This document shows positions 4,123 to 61,300 of a stretch of DNA of 64,000 nucleotides, piece after piece (position 1 is the first letter of the stretch; each line of letters opens with the position of its first letter). Location: the NCBI RefSeq assembly GCF_000787575.1, contig NW_012236532.1:994612-1058611 (forward strand), given 5' to 3'. Both the position numbers and the translations under genes were made by a program. The notes beneath the pieces were generated by a model that saw nothing but the letters and a program-made list of their open reading frames with translations, made no database searches and was not told the DNA's origin. This DNA comes from Acytostelium subglobosum LB1 (lineage: Eukaryota > Evosea > Eumycetozoa > Acytosteliales > Acytosteliaceae).

Positions 4123-7100
4123 TTAGTGTTGTGGCTGGACGAGGTTGGAGAGCTTGGCACCTCCGTGTCCTTTGTTGAAGGAGACGTTCTTGACCAGCTT
4201 GCCGCCCATGCTACTGATAGCGTGTACCAGCTCAAAGATATTCAGCTTGATTTGTCCTTGCTCAACGATTGGCATTGAATACTGTGCCTTGATAGGCTTG
4301 AATGGGATTGGATCGAGAACGGCCTGCTTCCACTTCAGGCCGATCTTATCGCCTCCAACGCCATCATACTCGAATGTGCAGTACTCCTTGAACTGCTCGC
4401 TAAGCTTATTGATGTAAATCTCAACCATGTTGAGTCCTGCCTCCAAATGTCCATTCTTGTTCGCCACGCCTGACTTGTTTGTTGTTGATGATCCAGTAGC
4501 TGTGCTGCCATTCTGTGGCTTGGCAATCAGCTGACTGGCCTTAATGTTCTTGAACAATGATAATGCCTTGGCCTCAAGAGATACTTGAGTGGGTGCAGTT
4601 ACTGGGGTGGCGGTGGCTACTCTGGGCACGGATGGTGACTGGGCGGCAGCCAGAGCAGCAGCGGCTGCAGCTGCGGGCTGCAACAACAATCGCTTGATCT
4701 CTCTCTCGCGATCTGGAATGTATTGATCGTTCAGTGTGATAATGACATCGTAGTCGGTGTAGTTAGGCTCAAAGATGGTGGTCATCTCCACCTGTGATTG
4801 ATCATTGCTGTAAGCCTCCATGCAGATGTCAAGCGAAGCCTTGGCTAGCTGTGCCAAACGCTTTCTGATGCTGCCGTCTGTGTCGCGTGGGTTGACATCC
4901 TTCCACGCCACGGATGGACGATCCTTGTCTGTGGCAATGAAGAACATCGGCAGGTTGTTGGCCTGCTTCTGTTGTTGGAAAATGGAGTTGATTGAAGAGA
5001 CGTCGCCAGAGGTGAGCGAGTCGACAAAGTCCACGATCAGAGGACGCTCGGTCCACTCGAATGTGGCCAGCAGATGCAGGAATCGCAGGAAGGCAAGCAT
5101 GGGCGATGTGGGCTGGTGCGTCTGGTCGTCCTGATCGTGTGCCGCACGGGCATTCTCTGGTGTGTATGGCTTGTAGATGCTGGCCATCATCAGTTCAATG
5201 GTGGGTTGTGCGATCTGATTGGTGAAGTTGTGCGCGTAGCACCATCGGAGTGCAAGGCGTGTGGCATGGCCGTATGATGGGTTTGATGTGTGCAGTGCCT
5301 GAACAAACTTGTGATGGATGCTGGTCCTCTGCATCAACAGCACACTCTTCAGCTTGTCCTGGTGCTTGCTGGTGAGGTAGTCCAGCTCCTTGGGGTAGTA
5401 GGGGATCAGGCGGAACAGGAAGCCGTCCTGCTTGACATCGAGGTACGCGTCGGTCAGGCGTGGCTGGTAGTCCTGTTCGGTAAGCTCGCGTGCCATCTTG
5501 AGCATGAACGCGGCCTTGAGTGCGTAGATCGAGTCCACGTCCGAGGTCCAAAAGCGTGAGTCCTCAAAGTGCAGCAGGACCTCGATCACAGTGTTTTGCA
5601 TGTATGTGTCGTCCTGAGCGGTGCGCACGCATGTGTAGCGTAGTGCAGGCGACATGGCCATGTATTCGTTGATGTGTAGTGGCAACGCCAGCGACTCGAT
5701 CTTGGTGACGAGGGCCTCCTTGGCGCGCATGACCAGCAGAGTGCGGTCGTCCATGTTGGCGCTATAGAGAATCCTGTCAAAGTGACTGATGTGCGATGAG
5801 ACGTTGGTGGCTGGCACCTTAAGCTGGAAGCCAAGGATATACTTGGCAATGTCCTCTACAATCAGTTGACGCTGTCCATTCTTGGGCGTCCATGTGGCGG
5901 CCTCACGGATCGAGCCGTCCTTGAAACGGCGCAGCTGAGATTTGGGACCCCATGCCTTGCGGAACTTGTCGGCGTCCTTGTGATCGGCCGAAGGGCCCAT
6001 GTCCACCAGACGCAGCCAGTTGGTCTGGTCGAGCTGGATGCCCACATTGATGATGCGCTCGTGCGATTCGGGCAGCTGCGCGCCAAACTTCCAGACAGGC
6101 GCTGAGTGGGGCAGGATGGTGATGGTGCGGGCACGGTTGGTGAGTGCGCGGTACAATGTCCTGTACACCCTGTGATCAAAGTAGGCCTCCTCGTGGTAGT
6201 AGTCGGTTGCTGGTGTCTTCATGTCGCACTCCTTGGACAACTTCACCTTTAGGATGTAGTCCCAGCACATCAATGGCTTGGTCTTGATCAGGAAGATCTC
6301 GTCAAAACCGTCGCCGAGGTCCAGGTGGCGCAGGGCCGTGGCGGCCTCGCGTTGCAGCTCGCGGAAGCCCCACGAGGTGACGCGCGAGAAAATGTTCAGC
6401 AGGCCAGTTGGATCGAGCAGCACGACTGGATACAGCTTCTTGAAGCTGTCTGTGTACTGGCCGAGTGTGAGAGTGGAGCCCTTCTCCAACTCGAATTGAA
6501 GGGGCTTGTTGAAATCCTTGGTGATGAACACCAGGGTCATGCGGAACGCTTGGTAGGTAGACATATTGCGATTGATGCGACCGATTGAGTAGAGGTAGGC
6601 CACCAACATTGAGAGGTGGAATGAGTTGATGGTTGGGATGTTCTTGACGTGTAGCCATGCCTTGAGCAACTGGATCGTATCCACCAACACTGGTGCACTG
6701 CGTATCTTATCATTGATCAAGTTCATGTGATCCAAATACATAATATCCTCGAGGATAGCATTGTTGTAAAAGGCTGATCTTGGGATGGACTCTGTTGTGA
6801 TTGTGTTTGGGGGACGGGGGAGGGATAGGTTAGTGATCGGTGATTGGTGGAGTGATTGAATGAGTGGAATAGTTCCAGTGAGTGATCAATCTTACCGAAT
6901 GGCTTTGGTCCCTTCTTCTTGGAAGAGTCGGATGACTCGGCTGCGATAGCGGCAGCGGCGAGTTGATCGTTGTCGTTGTCTCTGTATGTGTCGACCAGGA
7001 ATGAACCATTTTGGTTGGGCTTGGAGGTGTCGTCGGTGATGATGCAGTTGGCATCAGGATTGAACTTGGTGTCCATGCGGAAGAGACTGCGCGACACGCA

Positions 7101-8301
7101 GGGGATGATGCGGATGGTGAACTTGGTGTGTGCGCCAGTGGTCGCGTCCTCCTTGGGTCGCACGACAATGATCTGTTTGTTCGAGTCTCCGCCAAAGTGC
7201 GTGAATGACACGTTGGCAAAGCGTGCGTGCTTGCGTATCTCGTTGGCCAGTGTCCACATGTACAGATTCCTCTTGGTGAAGTACTTGAAGTTGTTGGCGT
7301 CGGTCTTGCCGATGCTCGTCTCGGGTATCTCCACGATCATGTCCACATTAGGATTGGACTTGATCACTGTCTTGATCATATAACTTCCACCAATCTCCAC
7401 ATTCAACGGCTTGCTAAATGCCAAATCAATATTCTCTCCAACAATATCCATTATCTTTACGCTCTCAATCATGTTGCTAAATACGTTGACCTAGTGTATG
7501 AATGAATGGTGTGAGTGAGTGAGTGGGGGGGAGGGGGGGCTGGGGCTGGAATAGTTCCATAGATTGATCATCACATACTGTTTGATCAGGGATTGATTCA
7601 ATTATGGTCTTGAGCTCAAAGAGTGCAGACTCGAGCGCTGTGGTCTTGGTGAAGTTGACTTTGAGCTCTTTGAAGAACTCGGCGATTTGGAGTCTGAAGA
7701 GATTGGAGTTGAATAGTTCGTGTGTCTCACGGAACTCTTGCATCTCCTCTGATGTGACGGCGCGTGATGTATCGGTTGGTGTGCTGGACTTGACAAACAG
7801 ACCCCTGTTTCTTGGGTTCTTGGCCTCCTTGTCGACGGCAACATTGATTCCACCGACAGCTCGCTCACTATCATCCATCATATTATCATCATCATCCATT
7901 CCATCGATATAATCATGATCATCTGGTAACTCTGTGTCATCGTCCATCACATCATCATCATCATCACTATTATCATCATCATTATCATCACTATTATCAT
8001 CATCATGTTCATCATTATAATACTTTGATTCATAAGTATAATCCTCATCGACATCATCATCATATCCACCTCCCAATGCCATTATAGAGTCTGTGATTGA
8101 TGTTTCATTGACTACATTCTAAATATACATAAATATATGTTAATATCATTCATTCAATCAATCAATCTATCATTCAATCAATCATACCTTTGTCTTCTTC
8201 TTTGGTTGATCTATGTTGCTAACAACTTGTTTCTTTGATGTTGTTGCTGATGTAGTTGTCGCAACAACCTTTGATTGTTGTTGCTTTCTCTTCTCTACCA
8301 T
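4123..8301 (-). CDS. nol6: Nucleolar protein 6 (Nrap/Utp22), ribosome biogenesis
   Basis: Four exons, 8301-8188, 8118-7579, 7490-6896 and 6791-4123, give 1305 residues, somewhat longer than animal NOL6. The protein belongs to the Nrap/Utp22 family, part of the small-subunit processome in the nucleolus. Diagnostic stretches are VGGSY-like text after the acidic N-terminus (IGGSYMIKTVIKSNPNVDM), YLDHMNLINDKI, LLKAWLHVKNI, ISTY/MSTYQAFRMTL and DPTGLLNIFSRVTSWGF. The N-terminus is Lys-rich and then strongly acidic (Asp runs between about 8070 and 7860). Residues near 690-720 hold an Ala-rich linker. Splice phases all agree (0, 0, 1). Introns 2 and 3 both carry the TGGAA-N3-TTCCA inverted repeat. 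The start is 280 bases from the divergent MMAB gene. Confidence 0.92.
6865..6877 (-). repeat. TGGAA-N3-TTCCA inverted repeat, NOL6 intron 3
   Basis: In the sense of the transcript it reads TGGAACTATTCCA, 18 bases after the donor, followed by CACTCATTCAATCACTC. Function unknown; one of eight perfect copies in the window. Confidence 0.8.
7547..7559 (-). repeat. TGGAA-N3-TTCCA inverted repeat, NOL6 intron 2
   Basis: Sense strand TGGAACTATTCCA, 19 bases after the donor, followed by a C-rich run and then CACTCACTCACTCA before the acceptor. Identical core to the copy in intron 3 of the same gene. Confidence 0.8.
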
Positions 8302-8580
8302 GTCTGTCTATATACTATATTATAGTTGTCAATGTCAATGAATGAGTGATTGACCATCATAATACTCGACCCCAAACAATACTTCCCTCGTCTCTCGTCT
8401 TTCTTCCAAAACACTCACTTTGATTTTTATGAATTAATTCAAATATTAATCGAAGTTCCCACATCCATAATTTCAATACAATCCCATAATCTAAAAAGAT
8501 TCATGTTATTCAAACTCGTCAAACATTATGTTCAAGTTGAATAAACGACACTATAATAGATCTTTACATATACACATACA
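8302..8580. promoter_or_regulatory. Shared divergent promoter region, NOL6/MMAB
   Basis: A 279-base AT-rich gap separates the two ATGs, so both genes must start transcription from it unless they have distant upstream exons. A 64-codon open frame inside (8350-8544) lacks coding character. No specific factor site is claimed. Confidence 0.4.
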
Positions 8581-9363
8581 ATGAGTGACGATAACAACAA
8601 TAATAATAGTATTGAAGAGACTGGAGATGGAGAACATATAAAGAGAAGTAGACTTTATACAAAGACTGGTGATAAAGGATACTCTTCATTGTTCAATGGT
8701 GAGAGGAAACCAAAAGACGACTCATTCTTTCATGCTCTAGGTGCAATAGATGAGTTGAATGCTACTTTAGGGTAAGCATATCAATCTATCATTAAATCAA
8801 TGAATCATAATCATACTCATTCATATTCATTCATACTCATCATCACAACAGTGTTGCTCTAGAGTATTGCATTGCGGATGGTAATGGATTGCAAGAGTAT
8901 ATTGAGAAGATACAATCATTGATGTTGGATATTGGTAGTTGTTGTGCTACACCATTGGACACATCAAAGGAATCACATTTGGCAAAGACACGCTTCAGTG
9001 ACAAGCATGTCATTGTACTCGAGTCATGGATTGATCTATTGGATTCCAAACTACCTCCCTTGAAGAACTTTATTGTACCAGTATGTTAAGGATGCTCTGC
9101 ACTCTGATTGAACGAATGATTGACCATCCATATCCAATATATAGTGCGGCGTTGGACTGGCTAGCTCACATCTACATGTTGCACGCGCTGTGTGTAGACG
9201 TGCGGAGAGGGACATTGTGAGTTTGTCTAGACACCAGGTGATTCCAGAGGATGTGGCCATCTTTGTAAACAGATTGAGTGACTTCTTGTTCGCGGCCTGT
9301 CGCTACGCAGCCATGAAGAGTGGCAAGTCCGAGTCGATCTGGAAGAAGAAGGACTTTAACTAA
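8581..9363 (+). CDS. mmab: Cob(I)alamin adenosyltransferase (PduO type)
   Basis: Three exons, 8581-8771, 8852-9080 and 9145-9363, give 212 residues, near the size of the PduO-type core. The enzyme transfers the adenosyl group of ATP to cob(I)alamin, making the cofactor of methylmalonyl-CoA mutase. The ATP-binding signature is intact: [17 protein letters not shown] at the N-terminus and [14 protein letters not shown] near the C-terminus, followed by [16 protein letters not shown], nearly the same as animal MMAB. The loop usually PGG or PSGG before that helix is PCGVG here. The N-terminus is short and acidic (MSDDNNNNN) without an obvious mitochondrial presequence, although the family normally works in mitochondria; a further upstream exon is possible. 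Intron phases are 2 and 0. The 3' end lies 49 bases from the convergent DTW gene. Confidence 0.93.
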
Positions 9364-9412
9364 GTCCACATCCAGCGCGAGATGTATATACATAATACAA
9401 TCAATCAAACAT

Positions 9413-10630
9413 TTACTTGACCACTACAGCAGGCTTGTCACCTACCCATGTCTTGCGCTTCACTCCATCCTTGTTGCCATTCTGTAATAATAGTTGATCG
9501 ATCATTATACGGAATGAATGGATCAGTTGCTGACAGACCTCTTCGCTCTCGCCAATGTTCTTCATGCCCAGGACGGCAGCCTCCAGCGTGGATATCCTGT
9601 CGACTGCTGGCTGTTTCCTCAGAGCATTATACATTGACTTTAACTTCTTGTCGCCAAACGTTAACCTGACACGCTTGATATCATCGGGGATGTGCTTGGC
9701 CAACTTCTTGGCCTGGCTCCATGTTCCATCCAATATGATCATCGTCAACTGAGGTAGCTCCGCCAACACTTGCTCATCCAATCTAATATCTCTCAATGAG
9801 TCTGAGATTGATATAATGTCATCATCATCATCGTTGTCTTGGTCTTGTGTTGCCTCGTCGTCATTGAGTGTTTGTGTGGCGGGTGTGGTCGTGGTCGTGG
9901 ACTTGGCCTCGCGATGTAGATCAATGTACTCTGAGATGTCGATTGAGTCTTGTGTTGGGAACAAGACAAAGCAACGACTATGATCGCATGTCTCAAAGAA
10001 CTGTTTGAGCGCCAACTCATCCTCCTCGATACCCATCACCAACAACTTTGATGTCTCATTGCCATTGCTTGGGTCCAACAAGTTGAGGGCAGGTCTTGCA
10101 CCAAACACAGCCTTCTTCTTCTTTGCAACTTCTCCACCTTCAGCTAGTTGAACTTGTTGTTGCGATTGTTGTTGTTGATCATAGTAATATCTATTTGATG
10201 ATAATGTTATAAGCTTGCCAGTGTTGCTAACTCTTGTCCACTCTTTGTGATGGAATAGTGTGATGTAACGATGTCTGAGTGAGAGTGGCGTCAACTTGTT
10301 ACAGATGCACAATGATGTCAAGAACCAACAGTTTGTACACTTTGAATGCTCGTGTAACATATCCAACAATGTCTCTTTACGTTGATTAAAGAATGCCTTT
10401 CCAACATCCCTATCTCCATTATTATATTGTTTTCTCTCTATCTTTGTCTTTGTATTTATCTTTGTCTTTGTCTTTGTTGTCTCTGTTGGTGTCTCTGTCT
10501 CTGAGGCTGACGTCACTGTCTCTGAGGCTGGAGTCACAGTCGTTGATGTAGTGGATGTTGATGTCATTGCTCGAACAGTAGTAGTAGTAGAGTAATAAGA
10601 TGATATAATACGTATACTTAGGCGATGCAT
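9413..10630 (-). CDS. DTW-domain tRNA-uridine aminocarboxypropyltransferase
   Basis: A single exon of 405 residues. DTW-domain proteins (TapT in bacteria, DTWD1/DTWD2 in animals) transfer the 3-amino-3-carboxypropyl group of S-adenosylmethionine to uridines in tRNA. Visible features are the zinc-knuckle-like CTNCWFLTSLCIC near residues 98-110, FHHKEWTRVSNTGKLI, the signature ILDGTWSQAKKLAKHIPDDI where DGTW stands for the DTW motif, and a conserved ISTLEAAVLGMKNI helix. The N-terminus (MHRLSIRIISSYYSTTTTVRA) is rich in Arg, Ser and Thr without acidic residues and could target mitochondria; a second Met at about residue 22 would remove it. A Thr/Lys repeat (TKTKINTKTK) and an acidic insert sit between the conserved blocks. 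Assignment to DTWD1 or DTWD2 is not possible from memory. Confidence 0.85.
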   Translation of the reverse strand: MHRLSIRIISSYYSTTTTVRAMTSTSTTSTTVTPASETVTSASETETPTETTKTKTKINTKTKIERKQYNNGDRDVGKAFFNQRKETLLDMLHEHSKCTNCWFLTSLCICNKLTPLSLRHRYITLFHHKEWTRVSNTGKLITLSSNRYYYDQQQQSQQQVQLAEGGEVAKKKKAVFGARPALNLLDPSNGNETSKLLVMGIEEDELALKQFFETCDHSRCFVLFPTQDSIDISEYIDLHREAKSTTTTTPATQTLNDDEATQDQDNDDDDDIISISDSLRDIRLDEQVLAELPQLTMIILDGTWSQAKKLAKHIPDDIKRVRLTFGDKKLKSMYNALRKQPAVDRISTLEAAVLGMKNIGESEEVCQQLIHSFRIMIDQLLLQNGNKDGVKRKTWVGDKPAVVVK

Positions 10631-10955
10631 TGATCTTGTACTACTCGCTCACTCATTCATTCATTCAAACATGTCATCCAATCGATCAAACCAAAAACAA
10701 AGAATGAAGTGAGATGTGTGTTTTTGTTCCTTTGCTTGCAAGCAAAAGTGGTGGAAAACTCAAAATCCGATTTTCAATTCTGATCCAGTCATGTGATGGT
10801 TGAATCGGTGTGATGGGAAGGAAGGAAACATGTGTCTTTTCTCCTACCCATTGTAAAGTTTAAAAAACAGTACTAGCTAGCTAATTCCTTACACTATTTG
10901 TCATCAATATCCTTAAATAGTACTTTGTTCAAACAGATAATAGATAATAATAATA
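10631..10955. promoter_or_regulatory. Divergent intergenic region, DTW gene/helicase
   Basis: A 325-base AT-rich gap between two opposite ATGs, presumably holding both promoters. It contains CATTCATTCATT microsatellite and GCTAGCTAGC-like text near 10873. No defined site is claimed. Confidence 0.4.
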
Positions 10956-13900
10956 ATGAATTTCTTTAAATCATTCCTTGGTCAAGGCGGTGATCAATCA
11001 AACAAATCAACACCAACATCAACTACATCAACTACTTCAACAAAACCAACAACAACAACAACAATATCAGCATCAACATCAAGTCAAACTCTAAGTCCCA
11101 CTCTATCTCAAACTCCAACTCCAACTACATATTACCAACAACAAACAATCAAACCTCTACCTCAACCTCCATCAACTCCAACATCAACATCAACGACAAC
11201 ATCAACATTTGGATCATTCTTTCAATCAACTCAAACAAATCCAAGATCACAAACATCATCCGTAGATCAACAAACAACAACATCATCATTATTGACCAAT
11301 ATAAAGGATATAGATAACATATTGGATCAATCGATACAACTTCTAAGATATGGCCTATCACTTGATTTGTCGAATGGATCGCCAAACAAAAGACAAATGG
11401 ATGCTTTGTTAAAGAGGATAGGTTTGCCAGAGTCAACAATGTATAGAATAATAGATATATATTCACATCAACTTGTATCAAAGATGAATAACTCTAATGA
11501 GTTGTATAAAGAACTTACTCATTCCAACTTTATCCAACACTTCTCCAACATCTCCACACTCTTTAATTCAAACTCATTCAAAGATGACCTCTTTGCCCTG
11601 AGGAACACCATCACACTTTTCACACACATCACTACCAAGTAAGTTAGACCTAAGGACACTTTGCGCCAGGATGACGATGACGATGACTTACTCCCTCATT
11701 CATTCATTCATTCATTCAATCAATCAGGGTCAGTGGCGGATCGGACTCCATCCCTTTGGAACTCTTTGAGTATGCTTGGCGCAACTCTCGACATTCCTCG
11801 GATTACCAAGTTGATGAAGGAGTAAGGAAGTTGAGAATCCAACAACTTACACAACAAGAGAAGGTATATATGATGTTCTTGAGGTTGCGGTCAGGTGACA
11901 CTTGGAATCATTCCGTCCCATAAATTAACATCTTAACCCCACCCCCACTCACTCAATCATGATCAATCAATGTGTCAAACGATGAATTAGATGTTAGACA
12001 TCAATAGAGATAGGATAGGTATTAGATATCATGATCTACCTACGTATCCAACGCAGAATGACTTTGAGAGCGAGAAGTTGACAGAACAGAAGTTGTTGAA
12101 GTACGGCCCATACTCATCGTTGGAGGACTACTTGGACACTCACTACTGTTTGATGCGCGAGGATATGGTCCATCCACTACGTGAAGCAATACATTCACAT
12201 CGTAAAGGACAAAAGTCACGCTATATCCACCATGATGTGACGTTCAAAGAGGTGTCGTGCTCCAATCGCTACTTTTGCTTCAAGATCTCGTTCAACAATG
12301 CCGTGCCCAAGAAGCGCTTCGACTGGGGTCGCACGTCCAGTCTGCTGTACGGCTCACTCGTCGGACTGACCAGTGTGGTGGACAACTTTGACTACACCTT
12401 CTGGGCCACGGTCGAGGACCGTCCGTCCGAGGGCAACACCAAGGAGATAACCATCTCATTCGTCGACAATGAATTGGACTATGCCAAACTGGTCCCGTTG
12501 CTCTTCAACAACACGTTCCTGATGGTCGAGTCGCCCGCCTACTATGTGGCCTACAAGAATGTATTAGACTCGCTCCAGAACATGTACGAGCTGCCCTTTG
12601 AGGACTACCTGCTCAACTGCCAGCAGCAGTCCACGCCGCCCACATACTTGCGCGACTTCCCCACTGTGGACTTTGCCACGGCTTTCAAGAGGGTCGAGCC
12701 AAGCGATTTGCATGATGTGGGCAGGTCCTTCCCCTCGCGTCTCGATGAGCTTGACGAGTCACAGATGGCAGCCCTCAATCATTGTTTGAGAAGTGAGATC
12801 TCGCTCGTTCAGGGCCCGCCAGGCACTGGCAAGACCTTCATCGCTCTCAAGATATTCAGTCTGCTGCACCAGCACATGGCCATCAACTTGGAGGATCATG
12901 AGCGTACACCCATCGTAGTGTTTTGCTATACCAATCATGCTTTGGATTCGTTTGTCAAGGGCGTGCTCAAGGTGACCACCAACGTTATCCGTGTTGGCAA
13001 TCGCAGTCAAGATCCAGAGTTGGATCAATTCAATCTCAAGCACAAGATACAAAAGGATCAAAAGCAGTTCAACAACTACAAGAAACAAGGCAAGATTAAC
13101 TCTGGACTCTTGGATTGCATGAAAGGTATGTTTGATTGATTGATTGATGGGGTGGAACCATTCCAGCCCAAGCCCAAGCCTCAGCCAATCACCAAACACT
13201 CACTCACTCACTCATACTAGCAATGAGGACACCGATTGAGTTACAGGATATACTCAAGGTAGCAGCACCAATACACGCCAACATTCTGCGCAAACTGAGA
13301 GTGGACTTGGCCATAGCGTGGACCAAAGGAATAAGAACAAGAATGCAACATACAAGACCAATCATGAAGAAGGAGGACAAGGACTCGGACGCATCAACAA
13401 ACTTGGATGAGTATGATGAGGATGAGGAAGCCGTAGAGGACCTAATCAAAAAGAGGAAGTTTGATATGGATCGCACGAATGAGAAGTATGACAGCTGCGA
13501 CATTGGCAATGCCATGTGGATAATGGAGCAGCACTACAATGCTTTTGAAGACGAGTATAACATCCTGGATCTGAGCGAAGACAACCAAGAGAATCTCTTT
13601 AGACATTGGCAACGGAAGCATATTGGATCGTTGCTGGCAACAATGGCCACACTCAAGACTGAGCTGGACAGTGTAACCAAGATGATCCTGCGCCAGGACG
13701 ATGAGTACAGCGTGATGGCCATGAAGCGTGCTGAAGTGGTAGCCGTCACGGCAACAGGAGCCAGCAAACAAAAGGCCGTGCTCGACCTTTTGAAGCCCAG
13801 ACTGGTGATCATTGAGGAGGCGGCTGAGGTTCTCGAGTCTCAGGTTGTGGCCATCCTGCCCAAGTCCACCGAGCATCTAATCATGATTGGAGACCACGAG

Positions 13901-15316: not shown

Positions 15317-15403
15317 ATAAAGATTGAATGATTGATTGATTGAATGGATGATTGTCGAACGCTCATTTAATGTTTAGTTGCTTGGCGTTTGTTGTCGTCA
15401 TTT

Positions 15404-17791: not shown

Positions 17792-17827
<36 letters not shown>

Positions 17828-27192: not shown

Positions 27193-28098
27193 ATGACTAT
27201 CCCAACCAACTTTGATATAACAGACGTCACATTCGTAGCCCAGGGCAAGACCAAGTCCATCTACAAATTCAATCAACATGACCAGTATGTGTTGGTCGTG
27301 TCCAACTCGTCGATCACTGCCGGTGACGGCGCCAAGAAGGATGAGTTGCCAATGAAGGGCATCAACTCGACCACCACCACCTGCAACAATTTCCGTATTA
27401 TTCAGTTGGCGGGCATCAACACACATTACGTGCGTCAGGAGCAGAACAACAGCTTCATCGCTCAGCGCTGCTCGATGATCCCACTCGAGGTGATCGTGCG
27501 TCGCATCGCCACCGGCTCCTACATCAAGCGCAACCCTCAGATTGCCGAGGGCACCAAGTTCAACACATGCATCGTCGAGTTCACCTACAAGGACGATGCC
27601 AACCACGACCCACTCGTCTCCATCGATGACATCCTCGCCATGAAGATGAACATTGGCGGTCACGCCATCGACACCACAGTCCTGGCCACCATCAGTCAAG
27701 TTGCCATTCAAGCCTTTGAGGCTCTTGAGCGTGCATGGGCTTCGACCGATGTAGTTTTGGTTGACTTCAAGGTATATGTCACTGGAACTATTCCACCCCC
27801 ACCCCAACCCCACTTACTCACTCACTCAATCATATAATAGGTCGAGTTTGGTGTTACTACTGATGGCACTATTATATTGGCTGATGTCGTTGACAATGAT
27901 TCATGGAGAATCTGGCCAAAGGGAGACAAGACACTGATGAGAGACAAGCAGGTCTACCGTAACATTCCACTCCAGGCTGGTGGCCCCACCACCAACACTC
28001 TCAACGAAGAGCAGACCAAGACATTGGTCGACAACTACACTTGGGTTGCCAACGAGACCTTCAAGATGGTCGACTTTGCCATCGCCAACAGGAAGTAG
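27193..28098 (+). CDS. purC: SAICAR synthetase (PurC domain only)
   Basis: Two exons, 27193-27771 and 27841-28098, give 278 residues. The enzyme condenses CAIR with aspartate using ATP, giving SAICAR in purine synthesis. Conserved features are VAQGKTKSIY (family GKTK), ITAGDGAKKDELPMKG, IPLEVIVRRIATGSYIKRNP, EFTYKDDANHDP, VDFKVEFGV across the splice, and ILADVVDNDSWRIWP. It resembles the SAICAR domain of animal PAICS more than bacterial PurC. In animals the chain continues into a PurE carboxylase domain; here it stops after MVDFAIANRK and no PurE-like sequence follows in the next 690 bases. The 69-base intron is phase 0 and carries the TGGAA-N3-TTCCA repeat. Confidence 0.94.
27783..27795 (+). 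repeat. TGGAA-N3-TTCCA inverted repeat, purC intron
   Basis: Reads TGGAACTATTCCA in the sense strand, 11 bases after the donor, followed by a C-rich run and CACTTACTCACTCACTCA before the acceptor. Confidence 0.8.
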
Positions 28099-30701: not shown

Positions 30702-32407
30702 ATGAAGAATGATGATGTTATATCATTGGACGATGATGATGATAATGATAATATAGATCTGACAACAACATCATCAACGACATCATCTTTAAAGACTACA
30801 TCGACCTCGTCGACATCAAACAGAAGTACGAACTACAACAACAACTATAATGGCAACAACAGCAACAACAGCAACAGCAGTAGTAGTGTCAATTACAATG
30901 GCAATGTCAATGTCAATGGTGGCACCAAAGTCAATCAATACAATAGTTTATCAGAGATAGATGACTCGCTGTTTGATGAAGACATGGACTTTAGTGGTAT
31001 AAAGACAACATTCGAGAGAGATGATACCATTGGCTCAAAGAAGAGAAAGAATAGAGCAAAGACTACTGATGTGTCTGATCGTTTGTCAGACTCAAGGCCA
31101 ACAAAGAAGAACACGACCACAACTATATCATCATCATCAAGACCCAAACCACCAACCAAACATAAAGAGGCACCAGATGGTACATTGTTATTAGAGGATG
31201 ATGATAATGATGGTTACCATGTTGATGATGACAACGACAACAACAACAACTACAGCAACAAGGTCAATCTCGACGACGATGATGACCAAATTGATGCAGA
31301 CAATGATGATCCCGACTTCATCCCAGCGCCGCAACCAAAGATGACAAAGAGACAGGCTGCGGTCAAGGCCACCGCACCCAAGAGGAAGGACACTCGTGCA
31401 GAGGCCAAGCGATTGAAGGAGGCCAACAGGAAGAAGAGCAAGAAGGAGTCCATGGGCGAGATGAAGATGGTAATCGACAACAATCTGTACCAGCGAGCAG
31501 AGACTGGCGACCTTATGTCAATCGTAGACGGCAAGTCCAAGTGGACTTTTGATACGAGGAGTGCGGACTTGCCCATCCAGTACTCGATCATCTGGAAACG
31601 CGGCCATGAAGAGCCGTTCAAACAAGAGGACATCATCATTCTCAAGTATCCAAACGATGTTTTGTATGGTTTTGTCGAGTCCAACACGCTCGTGCAGACC
31701 ATATCAAGCATCGTCGAGGCCAATCCCAATAAGCGACTGATCCTGTTGGTCGAGGGACTGGACATGCATCTCAAATCAGTCTCCCAGCAAAAGGCCAAGA
31801 CTGTCAATTCGATTCTCAAAGGCAATGGCAACATTGGAGACATCAATCCTCCTGAGGTCAAGAAGTTCTGTTCAAGGCAAGACTTTGACAAGCTCTTTGT
31901 TGAGCTACAGGTAAGTGGCCACAATCAATCAATCATGGAACACTCCAATCAAACACTTGATCACTAATATGGAATGATTCCATCCAGTTTAAATACTCAT
32001 TGATGATCAGAGTGCTTGGCAGCAGGGAGGAGTGCGCTCTCTATTTGGTCAAGTTGACAGAGACTATTAGTCAGATTCCATACCGCGAGGACACTTCCAA
32101 GTTGTTCCAGGGCTTCTGTTCGGACGCCATAAAGAAGCGCTCGAAGGACCCCAATCAAATATGGATCAATCAGTTAGTGACGATCAGTGGCGTGTCTCGT
32201 GCCATCGCCAGCACGATCGTTATGAAGTACCCGACCATCCAATCACTCTACAAAGACTACTTCAAATCCGACATGAACGAAAAGAGTCGAATGATGATGC
32301 TCAAAGATCTCAAGCTGGATTCAAGTCAGAAGCGTCTCGGACCTGTCCTCTCCACCAGGTTGTATAATATCTTCTGCGGTAATGATCCAAATAAAATTGT
32401 TCCATAA
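30702..32407 (+). CDS. eme1: EME1-like subunit of MUS81 structure-specific endonuclease
   Basis: Two exons, 30702-31910 and 31988-32407, give 542 residues. EME1 is the non-catalytic ERCC4-fold partner of MUS81; the pair cuts stalled forks and recombination intermediates. The N-terminal 230 residues are acidic and Asn/Ser-rich with a long coiled-coil-like Lys/Arg/Glu segment (KRKDTRAEAKRLKEANRKKSKKE). The ERCC4-like domain follows (IDNNLYQRAETGDLM, IILKYPNDVLYGFVESNTLVQTI, LILLVEGLDMHLKS), then tandem HhH-type helices (LVTISGVSRAIASTIVMKYPTI). The catalytic ERKxxD motif of MUS81/XPF is missing, which fits EME1. The intron is phase 0 and ends just after a TGGAATGATTCCA repeat. Confidence 0.82.
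31970..31982 (+). repeat. TGGAA-N3-TTCCA inverted repeat, EME1 intron
   Basis: Reads TGGAATGATTCCA and ends 5 bases before the exon, directly at the acceptor CATCCAG. A shorter relative TGGAACACTCCA is at 31936-31947 in the same intron. Location close to the acceptor differs from the other copies. Confidence 0.75.
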
Positions 32408-43065: not shown

Positions 43066-43078
43066 TGGAACTATTCCA
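43066..43078. repeat. TGGAA-N3-TTCCA inverted repeat, intergenic copy 1
   Basis: Reads TGGAACTATTCCA on the plus strand inside CAATCAATCAC...ATCAACC. Not in any intron I can place. Confidence 0.8.
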
Positions 43079-43116
43079 ATCAACCATTCTCGTTCACTAT
43101 TCACTCAATCAATCAC

Positions 43117-43129
43117 TGGAACCATTCCA
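43117..43129. repeat. TGGAA-N3-TTCCA inverted repeat, intergenic copy 2
   Basis: Reads TGGAACCATTCCA on the plus strand, 51 bases after copy 1 in the same flanking text, giving a tandem pair. Confidence 0.8.
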
Positions 43130-51007: not shown

Positions 51008-51145
51008 TCCAATCGATTCGAATCGAATAAATAATTAATTCCCCGACCTGTCTGGTTGGCCGGTCAACCCACCCTTAATGGTTCGATCGATAGTGTTCCA
51101 GGAATACATCACTGGAACAATAATAAATATTATTTTATTAACCTC

Positions 51146-52093: not shown

Positions 52094-52611
52094 GATGATA
52101 TGTATTTGTTTGATTGAATGAATAAATAAACATCTGTTTGTTGTCGACATGAAATATAACATTGTTGTTGCCAACTTGTTGGGGCATTCCAAGAATATCT
52201 TCCAAGAAGAGATATGGTTGTCAACAAGACATGGACACGAGCCAATTGAAGGAATGGTATTAATGTACCGTGCAGGGTTTATTAAATAATAAGGAGATGT
52301 ATGTAACAGGGATGGATGGATTGATTGATTGGGAATAAATAAATATATAAGTAACCGGTCGAGACGGACGATTGGTTGATTGGATTGGTTGATTGGTTGT
52401 GATTGAAACGGGGATGTTACACTGCTGCTACTACTCTTGGGGAGGAATGAAGACTGGGGAGGAGAGGGGCGAAGTGTAAGTGGAAGTGGAAGTGGAAGTG
52501 GAATTGTACGCCAATGGACTTGACTTACTTGATGGCAAGGCTGAGATTTGATTGATTGATTGATTGATTGTGATGGATGGATGGGGAGGATGGGAGGGAG
52601 GTACACACTCA
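52094..52611. other. Intergenic region, tandem minus-strand genes
   Basis: An open frame in phase with the WGR gene runs through here but is full of microsatellite-like text (GGAAGTGGAAGTGGAAGTGG near 52481, TTGATTGATTGATTGATTG near 52550), so I treat it as promoter/5' UTR. Confidence 0.5.
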
Positions 52612-54420
52612 TCATTGGTGTTTGTCGACACCAAAGCTTGGATGGGAGTTGGATGACTGTTGACCGAGATAGACTGGGTGGGGCTGGTTCCAGGGCATGC
52701 TGGGCATGTGGCCCGGGTGGTCCAGATGCTGGTGGTTGAACTGGGGTGGCCAGCCTTGAGGAGCGTTGAACTCGATGTTGTCGGTTGGCAGGGGAATCGA
52801 TGGCAGCAAAGATGATGGTGATGTTGATCTCTTGGCGACGATCGAGTTCCTGTTGACTCCGCTACCACTACTACTGCCACTGCTGTTGTTGCTGTTGCTG
52901 TTACTGCTGCTGCTTGGTGACTTGCTCTTCTTGACTGAGACGTGTTCGCCGGACGCGGAGGAGGAGCTGGGGCTCGAGTGCGACACACCATCGGGGTGGC
53001 CAGTGCCGCCCATGGTGGGCGAGTAGGGACTGCGTCTGTTGCTGTTCTGGCGGTTGAGCGCGTTGATGTTGTGCTTGCCATTGTTGTGAGCGTAAAAGTC
53101 GACAGAGCGGCCCTCAAAGGTGTTGCCTTCCTTGGACTGGGCGGCCACAACAACGCACAGCCTCTTGGACAGACGCGCCAGCTTCAGCTCAAACTCGAGC
53201 GCAGACTGGGGCGATTGGCCGATCGATGGGTATCTATATACACGCACGGACTCGACCGAGAGGCCCTGGGGGTCGGGTGGTGGCAGCTGGGTGGTGTGTC
53301 CGGGCGGAAGCACAGGTGAAGGATTCTGTGAAGGCGGCGTGACCGATATGGACACAGAGTATGGTGAAATGGCAGATGATGGTGGCGATATCAATGGCAG
53401 CACGTTGCTTTGCATTGGTGACTGCGTTGGCGACTGGGCCGGCGAGGAGAGGGAGAACGACGAGGGTGAGGGTGAAGAGGTGAGACCTTGGATAGTGTGT
53501 ACAGATGAGTTGTTGGATGTGGTAGTGGGCGAGGGCGACGATGCCGAGGCAGAGGTGGGACCGCCACCAGTAGTAGAGGACGATGTGGACGAGGAGCCGG
53601 CCGTCTGTGAGGTGGAGGTAGTGGACGATGTTGGTGAGCCGGGCGTGCCGCCAGAGGCAGAAGCCGAAGCTGAGGCCTTCTTGGCCGTCTGGAGGTCCAG
53701 GAGTGCGACCTGAAGGCCGACCTTGGTCAGCTCCTGCTCGCTATGTACAATCATTTTGATTCTCTTGCCCTTGCCCTCGGTGACACGGATCTGGTCCGAC
53801 ACGTTGATGGGCACCCAAGTACCCTTGGAGCCGCGTGGCTTGTGGTAGAGATCGATCTTGATGGAGCCCTCGATGCCCATGCTCTGGTAGTTGGCGGGGA
53901 GGAACGATGGCGACAACGAGGGGTAGTGGTGAAGCTGGGGCAGCTTGTCGTGGTGCACGCCTGGCAGCAAGTCGTGCTGGGGTGTCGAGTCGTGTTGGTA
54001 GTAGTACTGCTCGCCCGCCTGCTGCTGTGGCGATGGGAAGAAGATTGGTGCGCCTGGCACGCCAAACTGATTGAACGTGCGCTGAGGCCATTGAGGCGAG
54101 GCCGTCAGCTGACGCGCAGGGTTCATTGAGTTGGGGCCTGCGCCATCCAGAGCGCCGGGGAACGCGCTGAGGGTCTGAGGGAGGTTGCGTTGATTAAAAT
54201 ACACTCCGGCCATTTGATGTTGCTGGTGCTGGAGGTGCGATGAAGCCTGGTCGGGATGCGGGAGACCGGGGTGGTGCGTCGACGATGTGCTGGAAGTCGA
54301 GGTGATTGGATGTGTGTCGTCGCTGGAGATGCTGTCCGAACTGGATGATATGCGGGAGTAATATGGCTCGCTACGGGAGTAGTGCTCAATATTGGCCTGC
54401 TGGTGTTGTTGCTGCTGTTG

Positions 54421-54471
<51 letters not shown>

Positions 54472-54888
54472 ATGTAGGTCTTGGTACTTGTTCATAAATA
54501 CGTGGTTATCATGGAGAGGCGAAGCGAGCGGTGAAGATGGAGAGCTTGGCACAATGTGGTAGTTGTTGTTGTTGTTGTTGTTGTTGAATGAGTGATGGTG
54601 ATGTTGTTGTTGTTGCTGGTGATGATGTTGTTGCTGGTGTTGATGATGATGCTCAGACTTGAAGAAGAGGGTCTGTTGAGGCTTGCCTGCTGCTGCGGAT
54701 TGTCTGATGTGATTGTTGAGTGATTGAAGGTGATGATGGTGATGGTACGTTCCATTAGTATTTGATTGATTGGCGTTGCCACCAATTAGTGGCGGTGGCA
54801 AAAGGACTGCATTGTTGTTGCTGCTGTGGTGGAGGTTGTTGGCAGAGCCGCCATGGTGATGATTAAAGTGGCCTCGACTGATGTTCAT
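52612..54888 (-). CDS. cudA: CudA-like transcriptional regulator
   Basis: A single exon of 758 residues from the Met at 54888 (an in-frame Met at 54972 would add 28). CudA is a nuclear DNA-binding protein of dictyostelids needed for culmination and prespore gene expression, with a remote link to STAT DNA-binding domains. The N-terminal third is His/Gln/Asn homopolymer (HHQHQQQHHHQQQQQHHHH; a pure CAG run). The conserved core spans about residues 310-560: GSIKIDLYHKPRGSKGTWVP, VSDQIRVTEGKGKRIKMIV, ELTKVGLQVALLDLQ, then after a long Ser/Thr/Pro insert SVRVYRYPSIGQSPQSALEF and LKLARLSKRLCVVVAAQSK. The C-terminus is Ser-rich and Pro-rich. Assignment rests on memory of the conserved core and on size; a paralogue is possible. 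Confidence 0.6.
54427..54468 (-). repeat. Pure CAG (plus-strand CTG) repeat, 14 units
   Basis: Fourteen uninterrupted CTG triplets on the plus strand code Gln in the CudA-like gene, flanked by mixed CTG/TTG units that extend the poly-Gln on both sides. Prone to slippage. Confidence 0.9.
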
Positions 54889-57800
54889 TGTTTCAAGAGT
54901 CTCGGATATGTGTGATTTACAAATACAACAGTGATAAATGTGAGTGAATGAGTGTGATGTGGGGGTGATCAAAGTCGGGTTTGATTGGTGTGGGGTGTGC
55001 GATCAATGGGGTGATCAAGCGCGGGAAAGGGGTGGGTGGGTGATCTTAGAATACAAGTTATAATTAATGGGATTACTGTCAAATAATAATAATAATAATA
55101 AATTAAATAAATAATAAATAAATAGAGAGAGATAATAATAAATAATAATTAAATAATAAATATAATAAATAATAAATAAATAAATAATAAATAGGGTGAT
55201 TGATGGATATTCTTTTTGGGTGCGTGGATGGATATGTTTGGTCGATCGTCTGTAAAGTGATCCTATATCATTTTGTTTCACAAGCCTAATGTCGTTGTTG
55301 TGTCTCTTTGGCAATCAATCCTTTGGTTGGTTGGACAAAGCAAAGAAGGGGTTTTGAAGGCAAGGTTGGGGCAATGCAAGGCAAGGCAAAGATGATATTA
55401 TATCCTTTGGGATAACTATTATACAAATTTCCAAATAATCACTCCACTCCCTTAATATTATTATTGTTGTTGTTGATGATGTTGATGGATGTTGTTGGCT
55501 GATGTTGGGAAATGGGTAGTTTGTTGTTGTGATAATGGGACCGGATGGAATGTTGTTGTGGACTTGGGGATTTTTGTTTTGGATAATTGTAGTTTCCAAA
55601 GTGACTGTAGCTGGTTGGCTTGCTTGCTTGCTTAAGAGCAAAGTATGATAAGAAATACAAAACACAATAAACAACAACAAACAACAAGAACAAGAATAAG
55701 AAGATAGTACAACAGGATGATGATTGTTGGATGTTGGATGATGGATGGATGCTAGCATCACCAGCATAGCAGCGCAGTAGCAGTGATCAATCACCATTCA
55801 AGTTTGACTTCACACTCCCTCTCACCCACTCACCCATTGGATATACATGTACACGCCCGAGCGTGATGGTGATGGTAACCAAAGGGGGCGGGCTGGCGGG
55901 CGGGGTTGTTGTTGATGATGGATAAGAGATGGATTGATTGATTGATGGGATGGATTGATTGATTGATTGTATAAGTGTTGTCGCGCTCCCAATGAATGGG
56001 GGAGGGGTTGATGATATCATCCATAAAGAGAGGGAAGTCGACGATGGCAGAGTGAGAGCGAGAGAGGTGTTCGAAAGCAGAGATGCTGATATGGAAGTCA
56101 AAGCAAAAGCATCAACAACATAACATTGATTACGATCAGCCAATTCTGTGTGGATGACTGGCTGACTGACTGACTACCAATGGCGGTAGTCCACCTTTGT
56201 CAAGTGATCTCAAGTGTTATAACACATATATATGTGTGTTTGTGATGTGATGGATGTGTGTGATGGGTGTGATGGAGTGATTTAGTGAGTGTGATGAAGT
56301 GCTGGATGGGGGGGTGATGTCTATTCGTTTTCCAAAAGAAGCAACAATCACATACACCCATCCATCACCGGTGTCAGTGTGTGGGTACCACCCCTTCGAT
56401 TGATATGGATAGACGTGTGAAGATGGTGGTAGATTGATTGGGAGTGGGTTGGTTGGGTGATGATCAACATGATGATCAAGTTGCCTTTTCCTGTTGTTTC
56501 TGCTTAATATTTGTTGCTGTTGTTGCTGCTGCTGCTGCTGTTGTTATTGCTTATTGCTACTGCTAATGAATGATGATGGTGATGACCTCGCACATTCACA
56601 ATCACTCGACTGCTATCTTCTATCTCTCTCTCTTTATAACATATACATATATAACATTAACACACTCACTATCTCTATCACTATCACTCACTATAATAAT
56701 AATTAATTAAAGGGTTATATGTATATATGGTCGATGGATGGATTGATGGATGGATTTGGCAAGTGTGTAGGCATGTGAGTTGACATTAGGCGAAGCGTTT
56801 GCCAAACAAACACACACTAATAAACCTAAATTGAACCACCGACTTGTCGGCTGGCGATAGTGGTTGGTGGTGTGGCTGATGGAGATGGAGGTATTGATGA
56901 TGGAATGGATGGGATGGGATGGATGGACTGAGAGTGATCGGCTTTGTGTGTGTGATTCCTTTTCTTACCTTTTATAAATATATCGTTTCCTGGTAGGAGG
57001 AAGTACCTAAGAAGGGAAACACAGAGAGAGAGAGAGTGTTGGTTGTGATGACGTGTTAGTTCCTGTTCTTATTCTTATTCCAATTCCTTGATGCTACTAT
57101 TGCTGCTGTTATTGTTGTTGTTGTTGATTCTATTATTATTATTGCTCCAGCTGAATAAACTTTAACTAAGGGTATGTCAAGGGTATGTAGAGAACTAATG
57201 TAAGTATGATGGTGATGATCTTTGACATTTGGTCAAGGAATGATGATGGGCACGGCGTGCCGCGGGTAATTAACCAAGGGCTTATCCCACCCCCACACCT
57301 CCAAACTCATCAATCAATCAATCACAATGAGTTTGCGAACAGGGGGGTTGATTGGGCATGCCTGGGACCATGACTAGTGTTTGGGTCCTTACCTGTATGC
57401 TGGCTGGGAATTGATAAAGTCCACTGATCATACAAATAAATATATGTCTATCTGTATCTCTTTTTGTATCTGTAATGGTGTAACGGTTAGAGTAAACAAT
57501 TGGGCCTGCGAGAATGAGTGTGTGTGTAGTATTTGGTTGTTGGAGATGTTGACTGTTGGATGTTGTTTGTTGTTGGGTTGTTTTGGTTGCCTGGAGTTGA
57601 GTTGAGTTGAGTTGTTGTTTGTGGAGAGATAGATAGATAGATTAGGAAGGGTATTAGAGTATTGGTTGATGTGTGTTTATTGGAGACACGAGGAAAGAAG
57701 AGAGAGTGAGAGAGAGAGATTGAGAGAACAGTGAGAGTGGCCATGATTGGGCCTTTGCCTAGACATTAATCATCCGCCACAGACACACCCACCATCATTG

Positions 57801-58320
57801 AGAGCAATCATACACGCGGAAACACACAATTTTACACTGAACTTATCAATAAAATAAAAACAAATCAACAATCAATAATATCTTCAGACTTGGGAATGGG
57901 ACAGGCGCGACCGGATGCAATGATGAGGGGGTAAGTGGGTGTGTGCCTCCCAACCACGCCCATCCAATCAAATCATCTGATTGCGTGGTGAATGGGTCAA
58001 CATTAAGTGTGGGTGGTTCTGCTCGACAGACGGTCGTCGGATTGGTGGGGGTTGTGTTGGCAGGGCTCGAAAGAACATATTATTGATCAATAATATCCGA
58101 AGAAAGGTTGATCACTCTTCATACAACCTTCGAGTGGTAATCAATCAGATCGAATGTTCATGAATGAATGATGGACAGACGTCTGTCTCCAACAGCTATG
58201 AGCGGGGGATGATCAGTGAGTGTTTGAAAACAGTGAGCAGAGTGGGGGGTAATGAATGACCATCAGATTCTGATTGGATTGATTGATCATATGATCATTT
58301 GTTGTTGTTCATTCAATCAA
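54889..58320. other. 3.4 kb non-coding region upstream of CudA-like gene
   Basis: The largest gene-free stretch of the window, between the CudA-like start and the 3' end of the myotubularin gene. Contains AATAATAAATAAATA arrays (55077-55195), many GATG/GATT microsatellites, CTG/TTG runs near 56515 and 57095, a GCACGGCGTGCCGCGGG stretch near 57251, and AGAGAGAGAG tracts. Open frames within are not coding-like. It may be a large developmental control region. Confidence 0.55.
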
Positions 58321-61300
58321 TCAATGTCCATGTACATTGCGCCAGTGTCCATAGTACTCTTTCCAAAGGCCAAGACTCATAGTGTCGATAGACAAGATAT
58401 CTTCTTGATTGTTGACTTGGTATTGAGCATTGCGATAATGTGTCGTGTGTTGGTTCAGGTAGCTCCAGAGACTGGGTGTGCGACTGCGCAGGTCATTGTT
58501 GACGCGCTCAGCCTCGCTGTCAAACAGGAACGTGCCAAAGCGACAGGAGTATAGGTGGTGCACAATGTCCTGCAGATACTGCGTGTTGAACTCGAACTTG
58601 CTGGCGTGCTGGCGCATCACCTGGTAGACGCAGTCGATGAACTGCACAAAGACGGGCGCATGCTCGATGGTGTGCTCATCGCGCGAGCCATGACCAATTC
58701 GCGACTCAAACTTGTGGCCAAACGACAGCCACTCCTTCTCGATCAGGCGCTGGAAGCCCAGGATCGTGCGGTACTTGGCGTCCAGGATCAGCTCGGCCAG
58801 CGCGCACAGCTGGCTGGTGCGGTCCCAGCCGTCCGAGCAGTGGACAATCACCGACGACTTGTAGAAGCGGATCGTGTCGACAATCTCCACGACGCCAGAG
58901 AGGATGGCGCGGATGTGGCCCAACCACAGCTCGGTGGCCTTAGCCATCTTGGCCTGCTGGCGCTCGGGTTCGCGCTCAAACATCACCGCCTTGGATAACT
59001 TGGTCTGCGCGTCACGCATCTTGTGGATGTTCTCGATGCCCAGGAACTTGAGGATCACGTTGTTGTACGTGCCCTTGGTCGAGCCTTCGTAGCCCATGCC
59101 CATGACCTGGTTGGCGACGGCGTTGATCTGTGGTCGCGCGTCCAAGATGTACACCTTCTCCGACAGAAGGTTGGCCAGACGCACGCACTCCACCAGCTTC
59201 TCGTCCTCAAAGCATCGCTTGCCAGTCACACCAATCACTGGCTGTGAACAACGTATGATCACAGGATGGTCTTTGGCACTCTTCCAGACCACTGCCGGTA
59301 TGCGACCCTTTGATCTAAATGATGCTATGTTGATCAGTTCCAGATCAGTGATCTTCTTGGGCACGACCAATGATGCTGGATAAGTTGGCGAGTAATAATA
59401 ATCATTGTTGAAGTCTGATATCCTCCAGCTCTCATTCGGTATTCCCATGCGCTTGTACTCCTCTATCGGGTTATATACATCCCATCCCATACCTATCAGT
59501 GGCTCTGTATCCAGTGATTGATTGATTGATTGATTGATCGAGTGTTAGTGTCGTTGTCCACAGGCCATGCGAGGACCATCCAGATGGTCTATGATTGGAC
59601 ACATACCAGTGTTGCCAAAGCAATAAAGTTTGGGATACTCCAGGAATATGAGGTTCTCGAATATCTCGTATAGTCTGGCGTTAGCCTTCTGTTGCGTTGA
59701 TCCAGGTCTATGTGTGTTTGAGAGGTTGGTTAGTCCATGAATTGACTGGTATGATTCCAGACAGGACAGGACACTTACAGATGCATGAATCGTACTCGAT
59801 GGAAGTCCTTGCAGCGTATCTCAAACGCGTAGTATTTGAGGTTGTCCGGCGTGAAGCCTGTGCACTTGACAATGCCCTTGATGCTGCCGAGAACGACAGA
59901 GACGCCGTCCAACTCACACTTCTTGGATTGCTTGTTGCCAGTGTAGTAGGGTGTGAAGTGCAGACGGTAGTTGGTCAGAGTTATCCTGCCAATAGTTCCA
60001 GAGTTCTCGTGCATGTGAATGATGCTTTCGCTAATATATACAATCTCCTCGCTGCCCATCAGAGCAAAGTCGCCCAACTTCTGTTTGTTTCTATCTGCCA
60101 GCACCTTGGCCTGCTGGCTGGAGCTGAGTGATGAAGACAAGCTGGCCGATGATGACGCGGCCACATTACTACTCTTTGGATTGATCCTTGATAGTGAGAG
60201 GAATCTCCTCTTACTCATCGTCGTCGGTGTAATTGGTGTAGGTGCAGTTGATGTTGGTGTCGTGGTGGAAGTTGTGGAGGTTGGGGTTTGTGTTGGTGCG
60301 GGCTCATCCAAGTCCACTTGATGTTGTTGTTTCTGTTGCTGTTGTTCCTTGATCTGAAGCTTGATGTGCTCTGGAGATAGTACAGTCTTGTACGATAGTG
60401 TTGCCTCCAATAGATTGATCGTCTCCTTGTTCAGTTTGTTCTTCTCAGTCTTGAATTGATTGATTGATTGAGTGAGTGGAATAGTTCCAGCCAAGGTCGA
60501 ATGGGAGGGATATACTTACACCTTTGTTGGTGGATGAGTGATCGACTTGCCATTCTTGATCATTGATGCATACGCGGAAGCTGTTGGCCAACTCCTTTTG
60601 GAGGACCATGTTGGCGGCTAGGGACTTCTTGACACTTAGTGTGGATGTGCCAGATGCATTGAGCTTGGGCGCGAAGCTACGACCAAGTGACATGGTTGGA
60701 GCAGGTGGTGGGTTTGGTATATTTACAATGGACGACATTGATGTGTTGTTGTTGTTGTCCGTGGTGCTGTTGTTGGCTGTAATGCTGCCTGGCAAGGGGA
60801 TGATGCTCTCCTTGTTGATGGTCTCCAGCCATTGGTTCAATTTGAACTCGGACTCGGAGCAGAGATAGTATCGCTCGACATTGTTGTTGATCATTTCGTC
60901 GTCGTCTGGTCGAGCACTGGCGCAAGAGAATGGCGATGCCGAGGGCACAGCCATGGGGTGATGAGCGCCAGCCGAAGTCTTGCGGGACATGACGTCAGGC
61001 CCATCAATCTGAACTTCAATGCACAGTTTGTCCAATGTATGCACAATCTTGGCGCGACAGTCGCGTAAGGGGATCACACCCTTGGCCTCGGCATACTGAT
61101 CACGTGTCCTCCAATAGAACAGATTGGAGTTCATCGCCGCAAAGTACATCTTGGTCCACTGACGCACCTTCCTGTTGGAGATGGGCTTGGCACGCTGTAT
61201 CAGCAGGTAGAGATAGCCTTCGCGTGATGGGTTGGCCAACGTCTTGAGCGACGGAGAGAAGTTGGGGTCGAGGAACACCTTGAGGTTGCGTGACTGCTTG

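What the first reader, a model, noticed from the sequence alone, without database searches (positions are those of the whole stretch)
6865..60489. A 13-base inverted repeat, TGGAA-N3-TTCCA, recurs in introns of unrelated genes
By eye I find eight perfect copies: 6865, 7547 (NOL6 introns 3 and 2), 13153 (helicase intron 3), 27783 (purC intron), 31970 (EME1 intron), 60477 (myotubularin intron 1), and a pair at 43066 and 43117. Near copies lie at 11903 and 59748, also in introns. With ten fixed bases, chance alone predicts well under one copy in 64 kb. In five of six introns the sense strand reads TGGAAC(T/C)ATTCCA, and four share a layout: donor, TTGATTGA-like text, the repeat, a C-rich run, CACTCACTCA, acceptor. 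This looks like introns derived from a common mobile source (introner-like), or a conserved intronic hairpin or protein site. I know of no described element of this kind in dictyostelids.
Basis: partly seen in the sequence, partly recalled or inferred. Interest (0 to 1): 0.75.

Follow-up and report, generated by a model that had tools for sequence, protein, structure and literature searches.

The report
Palindromic 13-base tag in amoeba introns
A 13-letter DNA palindrome recurs about 1,500 times in this social-amoeba-like genome, mostly inside introns as far as sampled, and looks more like a maintained landing site for a protein than a leftover of a jumping intron; which protein reads it, and to what end, is not known.

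Summary
All eight copies are present (0.13 expected). The 30.7 Mb genome has 1554 copies against 41 for the reversed pattern; the refined form TGGAAYYATTCCA has 1341 against 3. Of 53 distinct copies examined, 41 lie in introns predicted by a home-made gene model that masked the motif, 9 in its noncoding class, 3 in exons. Two exonic copies are FNIP protein repeats, a coding coincidence. Spacing is exactly 3. Introners are not supported: no end repeats, no full-length similarity, though motif introns are somewhat more alike than others. An RNA hairpin is not supported at arm pair 4/10 (A-U 1341, G.U 164, A.C 259, G-C 45), with a small excess of G-C left unexplained. Permitted centres are YYA and, less often, its reverse complement in the sense strand, which fits duplex DNA read by a dimeric protein. 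The intron preference is then the puzzle, so a role in the transcript remains a close rival. No printed description was found in the searches listed.

The parts
6865..6877 (-). perfect dyad, sense TGGAACTATTCCA, in predicted NOL6 intron 6792-6895
   Evidence: protein matches human NOL6 on both sides, but this junction falls in the gap between the two aligned stretches
7547..7559 (-). perfect dyad, sense TGGAACTATTCCA, in NOL6 intron 7491-7578
   Evidence: the alignment to human NOL6 runs through this junction
11903..11915 (+). one-mismatch copy TGGAATCATTCCG in predicted intron 11864-12056 of the ZNFX1-like helicase gene
13153..13165 (+). perfect dyad TGGAACCATTCCA in helicase intron 13126-13220
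   Evidence: AAA_11 match 303-659 spans the junction at aa 428
27783..27795 (+). perfect dyad TGGAACTATTCCA in purC (SAICAR synthetase) intron 27772-27840; the protein aligns to 4ja0 without a break across the splice junction
31970..31982 (+). perfect dyad TGGAATGATTCCA in predicted intron 31911-31987 of the EME1-like gene
43066..43078 (+). perfect dyad TGGAACTATTCCA, between two predicted minus-strand genes
43117..43129 (+). perfect dyad TGGAACCATTCCA, 51 bases from the former
59747..59759 (-). one-mismatch copy, sense TGGAATCATACCA, in predicted intron 59708-59778

Best explanation
The 13-mer (consensus TGGRAYYATYCCA) is a maintained, sequence-specific site read in double-stranded DNA by a dimeric protein whose two halves each recognise TGGRA. 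It is placed mostly in introns, usually between donor and branch point, where it costs no coding sequence. I infer that the bound protein acts on the gene from inside the transcribed region, for example as an intragenic regulatory site or as a roadblock that slows polymerase near the splice sites. Shown: the enrichment, the exact spacing, the intron location in the sample, the near independence of the arms at one pair, and the two-strand set of centres. Inferred: selection, the protein, its dimer form and its effect.
For: Enrichment 1554 against 41, and 1341 against 3 for the YYA form. Spacing of exactly 3: 14 copies in 264 kb against 0 to 3 at every other spacing from 0 to 30; among 5-3-5 inverted repeats in introns TGGAA has 10, the next ones 3. 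Introns: 10 of 14 copies in 264 kb (introns 13.8% of sequence), and 31 of 39 distinct copies in other loci. Arms vary nearly independently at pair 4/10: 1341, 164, 259, 45; expected double 31.7, odds ratio 1.42, Fisher p 0.06. The ratio 259/164 = 1.58 equals the C/G ratio of introns, 1.58. Single changes at these two symmetric positions make 423 of about 673 net transition variants, the remaining about 250 being spread over the other eight positions and multiple changes. Sense-anchored centres are YYA 32, TRR 6, other 3 of 41; TRR is over-represented among the nine non-YYA (p 0.00044 or 1.5e-5 by background used).
Against: A promoter-type factor should favour intergenic DNA, yet 41 copies are in introns against 9 in the larger noncoding class (p 4e-10 or less). 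YYA is commoner in sense than intron composition predicts (32 of 38, p 0.0025 to 0.004), and +3 is C in 25 of 33 intron copies: both are strand-specific. The G-C double at pair 4/10 exceeds expectation by a Poisson test (45 against 31.7, p 0.015), a hint of pairing. The isolated hairpin forms in the predicted fold of 16 of 29 copies. A second arm pair, 5/9, was not informative (8 against 8). Four of the six TRR centres are TGA, the least asymmetric kind. No first-intron preference: 3 of 10 listed intron hits against 37% of all introns. No candidate protein: a TEA-domain search was empty, but so were its 14 controls.
Confidence: 0.42

Rival explanations
1. It is an RNA element of the pre-mRNA: UGGAA-YYA-UUCCA, as a small hairpin or as bound single strand, that helps define the short introns upstream of the branch point.
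For: Intron preference; CTAAC lies downstream of the motif 15 times and upstream once in introns up to 300 bases; sense bias of YYA; donor-linked matches YYA 242 against TRR 122 genome-wide; +3 C; hairpin in 16 of 29 predicted folds, median pair probability 0.74, mean 0.51; G-C double above expectation by Poisson (p 0.015).
Against: A.C variants (259) outnumber G.U (164) and G-C (45) at pair 4/10; wobble-keeping and wobble-breaking variant totals are about equal after subtracting perfect copies and controls (326 and 347). Much of the sense bias is intron composition (1.62:1); the uncorrected donor-linked count is not significantly above it (z 1.8; 3.6 after my correction for chance donors). 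Reverse-complement centres are tolerated in sense. Motif introns do not have weaker donors or fewer CTAAY branch points.
Confidence: 0.33
2. The motif introns descend from a mobile intron (introner-like) family; the 13-mer is what has been kept while the TCAN-repeat remainder slipped and decayed.
For: Stretches on both sides of the motif are more alike than background: upstream 11.4 against 9.5, downstream 19.5 against 12.3, 0 of 40 resamples each; downstream also after matching TCA density (19.7 against 17.4, 0 of 60); TCA in phase at +2 and +6 (14 and 11 of 33); slightly longer junction duplications (p 0.004) and AG exon ends in 11 of 31 against 40 of 241.
Against: No full-length alignability, no terminal inverted repeats (p 0.44), donor-to-motif distance 7 to 206, several copies in one intron with differing centres, both centre orientations, copies outside introns. 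Junction duplications are 0 to 3 bases in 29 of 31, and the background set contains false introns, which weakens that comparison.
Confidence: 0.12
3. No function: the motif is a by-product of TCAN-rich simple sequence or of the FNIP coding repeat.
For: Motif introns are rich in TCA (median 0.102 against 0.047 per base); two exonic copies encode FNIP repeats.
Against: In 264 kb, introns away from TCAN tracts carry the motif nearly as often as those near them (2.31 and 3.38 per 10 kb, 5 copies each). The motif contains no run of TCAN units. Exons hold 3 of 53 copies by the model, plus L006 (FNIP) and probably 13793 of the joined stretch (open frame) among the 9 'noncoding' ones.
Confidence: 0.05

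Closest known systems
Introner elements (Micromonas, Aureococcus, Amoebophrya; PMC7789003, passages seen)
   Same: A repeated sequence shared by introns of unrelated genes, with inverted repeats
   Different: In Amoebophrya the inverted repeats pair the two ends of the intron and come with direct repeats at the junctions; here a 13-base dyad lies inside and the rest is not alignable
Palindromic binding sites of dimeric DNA-binding proteins (recalled kind)
   Same: Exact half-site spacing, dyad symmetry, near-independent tolerance of the two halves
   Different: Such sites usually lie in promoters (recalled); these lie mostly in introns of any rank
Intronic splicing enhancers (PMC2481429, PMC1877881: search listing and abstract starts only)
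   Same: Short sequence enriched in introns
   Different: From what was seen those are animal splicing motifs; a 13-base dyad of this copy number was not mentioned in the listing
Highly iterated palindromes of prokaryotes such as HIP1 (recalled)
   Same: One palindrome in great excess across a genome
   Different: Those are also common in coding DNA (recalled); this one is rare in exons

Membership tests
Introner elements | Near full-length sequence similarity between introns at unrelated sites | tested here: not met
   similarity is modest and largely TCAN-rich text, with a small excess after matching
Introner elements | Terminal inverted repeats and target site duplications | tested here: not met
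   end complementarity as in background (p 0.44); junction duplications 0 to 3 bases in 29 of 31, slightly above background (p 0.004)
Introner elements | Lineage-specific intron gain | not testable with these tools
   No relatives of this genome are held
Conserved RNA hairpin | Compensatory change between arms | tested here: not met
   odds ratio 1.42 (Fisher p 0.06, Poisson p 0.015) at pair 4/10, with A.C far above G-C; pair 5/9 uninformative; three pairs not tested
Conserved RNA hairpin | Stable fold | tested here: inconclusive
   formed in 16 of 29 predicted folds
Dimeric DNA-binding protein site | Fixed half-site spacing and sequence | tested here: met
   14 at spacing 3, at most 3 elsewhere; genome counts
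Dimeric DNA-binding protein site | Used equally on both strands | tested here: inconclusive
   both orientations occur in sense, unequal beyond composition in the sample
Dimeric DNA-binding protein site | A protein that binds it | not testable with these tools
   No binding data; TEA-domain search empty with empty controls
FNIP coding repeat | Motif lies in FNIP coding sequence | tested here: not met
   Two of 53 copies (L003, L006) were scanned and are FNIP; 41 are in predicted introns

The most novel reading that the evidence does not exclude
A genome-wide intron tagging system: about 1 in 23 introns (10 of 230 predicted) carries a site for one dimeric DNA-binding protein that sits on the gene body and couples transcription to splicing, a kind of control for which the searches here found no description in amoebae.
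Probability: 0.15. Interest if true: 0.82.

Novelty: new variant of a known kind. Interest (0 to 1): 0.6.

Why it matters
A 13-base dyad 38-fold above its reversed control, about 450-fold in its refined form, concentrated in introns of unrelated genes, points to an intron-based regulatory layer in a compact protist genome. The prediction is concrete: one protein, one site, more than a thousand introns. That makes a link between gene-body DNA binding and splicing testable in an amoeba.

Tried and rejected
Introner reading: tested by similarity, end repeats and junction duplications, not supported, with the small excess likeness told above. Hairpin reading: tested by genome counts of arm variants, not supported at the one informative pair. 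TEAD-type factor (half-site resembles the recalled CATTCCA site): family search empty, all 14 controls empty too, so uninformative. Weak-splice-site compensation: donors equal (p 0.25), acceptors slightly better (p 0.007), CTAAY in 45% against 43%. Rfam at gathering scores in the window: no match. Strict sense orientation, as the window alone suggests: weakened by genome counts 242 against 122. These are matches, not copies: one copy can match twice (C35:347988 and 348004) or on both sides, and some of the 122 must be chance GTATGT words. My correction to about 232 and 92 is rough; it rests on 18 ACATAC and 5 GTATGT words in 20.8 kb of intron. In one search the 'antisense' rows are wrong because the script did not complement Y; one search replaces them. 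The pairwise test counted masked letters as matches; replace it. The gene model masks the motif when decoding, not when training; it has no RNA evidence behind it and misses some exons. Literature searches; six text forms of the 13-mer were searched and three papers hold one of them, unrelated by title (listing only).
Full report
The observation. All eight perfect copies of TGGAA-N3-TTCCA are in the window at the stated places; 100 shuffles give 0.13 on average and never more than 2. With one mismatch there are 14 against 2.9. The window is part of a 30.7 Mb genome in 56 contigs, which holds 1554 copies; the pattern read backwards has 41. Restricting the centre to YYA (on either strand) keeps 1341 copies against 3.

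Where the copies are. No annotation was available, so I trained a small gene-finding model on 264 kb (the window and the 200 kb before it) and masked the motif when decoding, so that it could not itself call an intron. The model predicts 230 introns, median 88 bases. Of 14 perfect copies in that stretch, 10 are in introns (13.8% of the sequence), 3 in the noncoding class and 1 in an exon. One of the 3 noncoding copies (13793 of the joined stretch, in L017) has an open frame through it and is probably exonic. In 35 other fetched loci, taken in listing order from small contigs (C2 to C17) and chosen only for holding the motif, 31 of 39 distinct copies are in predicted introns, 6 in the noncoding class and 2 in exons. 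So 41 of 53 are intronic. As a check on representativeness, 12 of 53 have GTATGT within 30 bases upstream on one strand or the other, YYA and TRR centres only; genome-wide there are 364 such matches for 1554 copies: 23% both times. Homology supports several junctions: the purC protein aligns to 4ja0 straight through the 27772-27840 junction; the NOL6 alignment runs through the junction of 7491-7578, while that of 6792-6895 falls in a gap between two aligned stretches; the helicase AAA_11 match and, outside the window, a RhoGAP match span motif introns.

Exonic copies. L003 and L006 carry the 13-mer in FNIP repeats, where GGA-ACC-ATT-CCA or GGA-ATC-ATT-CCA reads Gly-Thr-Ile-Pro or Gly-Ile-Ile-Pro. 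This is a coding coincidence and a warning against reading the raw genome count as introns only.

Anatomy. The spacing is exactly 3: 14 copies, with 3 at spacing 4 and 0 or 1 elsewhere up to 30; among 5-3-5 inverted repeats in introns the next commonest arms have 3 copies against 10. At other spacings a few GATC- and TTGAT-type dyads reach 4 to 6 copies in introns. In introns under 130 bases the motif sits mostly in the first half (24 of 29 positions are below 0.52), and CTAAC is downstream of it 15 times against 1. It occurs in introns of any rank. The 3' flank tends to TCA in phase at +2 and +6 (14 and 11 of 33) and C at +3 (25 of 33). Motif introns are richer in TCA and C than others.

DNA or RNA. 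Three tests. First, arm pair 4/10, genome-wide with YYA centre: A-U 1341, G.U 164, A.C 259, G-C 45. If pairing mattered much, A.C should be rare and G-C common; instead the two arms vary nearly independently (expected G-C 31.7, odds ratio 1.42, Fisher p 0.06). The excess of G-C has a Poisson p of 0.015, so a weak pairing effect, or a mixture of subfamilies, is possible. Second, wobble-keeping and wobble-breaking transition variants are about equally common: 1728 and 1824 in total, which leaves 326 and 347 after the 1341 perfect copies and the controls of 61 and 136. Third, with the intron strand known, centres are 32 YYA, 6 TRR (four of them TGA), 3 other. TRR is the reverse complement of YYA; a reader of RNA has no evident reason to favour it over other triplets, a reader of duplex DNA has. 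Against this stand the intron preference itself and the sense bias beyond composition in the sample (32 of 38, p about 0.003); the genome-wide donor-linked counts, 242 against 122, are above composition only after a rough correction (z 1.8 before, 3.6 after). TRR copies with NTCA downstream number 141, so flank and centre are not one rigid oriented unit.

Selection. Single changes at positions 4 and 10, which are equivalent under the dyad, make 423 of about 673 net transition variants; the other eight positions and multiple changes share about 250. Neutral decay would not single out two symmetric positions. One-mismatch copies are not rare, though: 24 with YYA centre in about 310 kb, 15 of them transversions, several at the outer positions 1 and 13 (the part of that script not affected by the fault told in Tried and rejected). 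I therefore take selection as likely, not proved.

Origin. Motif introns are not copies of one intron: similarity outside the motif is modest and largely TCAN content, though a part remains after matching. End repeats are absent, junction duplications are short. I give an introner-like origin about one chance in eight.

Literature. The searches and 62 of the held open-access library showed no description of this motif. Of the papers found I saw passages of PMC7789003; of the others, listings and abstract starts only. Most subscription papers are not held, so this is a limited statement.

Verdict. A real, strongly enriched, intron-centred dyad. Best reading: a protein site in duplex DNA used from within introns; the RNA reading is close behind. 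The deciding evidence is experimental.

Noticed in passing
L003:1021-1962 (-), L006:1229-1813 (+): FNIP repeat proteins encode the same 13-mer by chance of codons (G-T-I-P, G-I-I-P), which adds exonic copies to the genome count.
   Followed up: yes
introns of the 264 kb stretch: TCAN tetranucleotide runs are strand-biased in introns: 2750 bases in sense against 1095 of TGAN; ACTAAC, the likely branch point, is well above expectation (68 against 29).
   Followed up: partly
C18:78548, C40:610996 and C52:978588 of G000 (listings): The palindrome TTTCCAAAAAAGGAAA (first two places), resembling MADS-box (CArG) sites by recall, and a related one at the third, lie between a GTATGT and the motif. The first was absent from the 264 kb stretch.
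   Followed up: no
C35:214638 and 220991; C42:628493 and 636267 of G000: Identical donor-to-motif stretches at two nearby places each, probably duplicated genes, useful for testing conservation of the motif against its flanks.
   Followed up: no
L001 (C2) and L049 (C17): The same intron region, 241 of 241 identical, on two contigs: assembly redundancy or a recent duplication, so genome counts include some doubles.
   Followed up: partly
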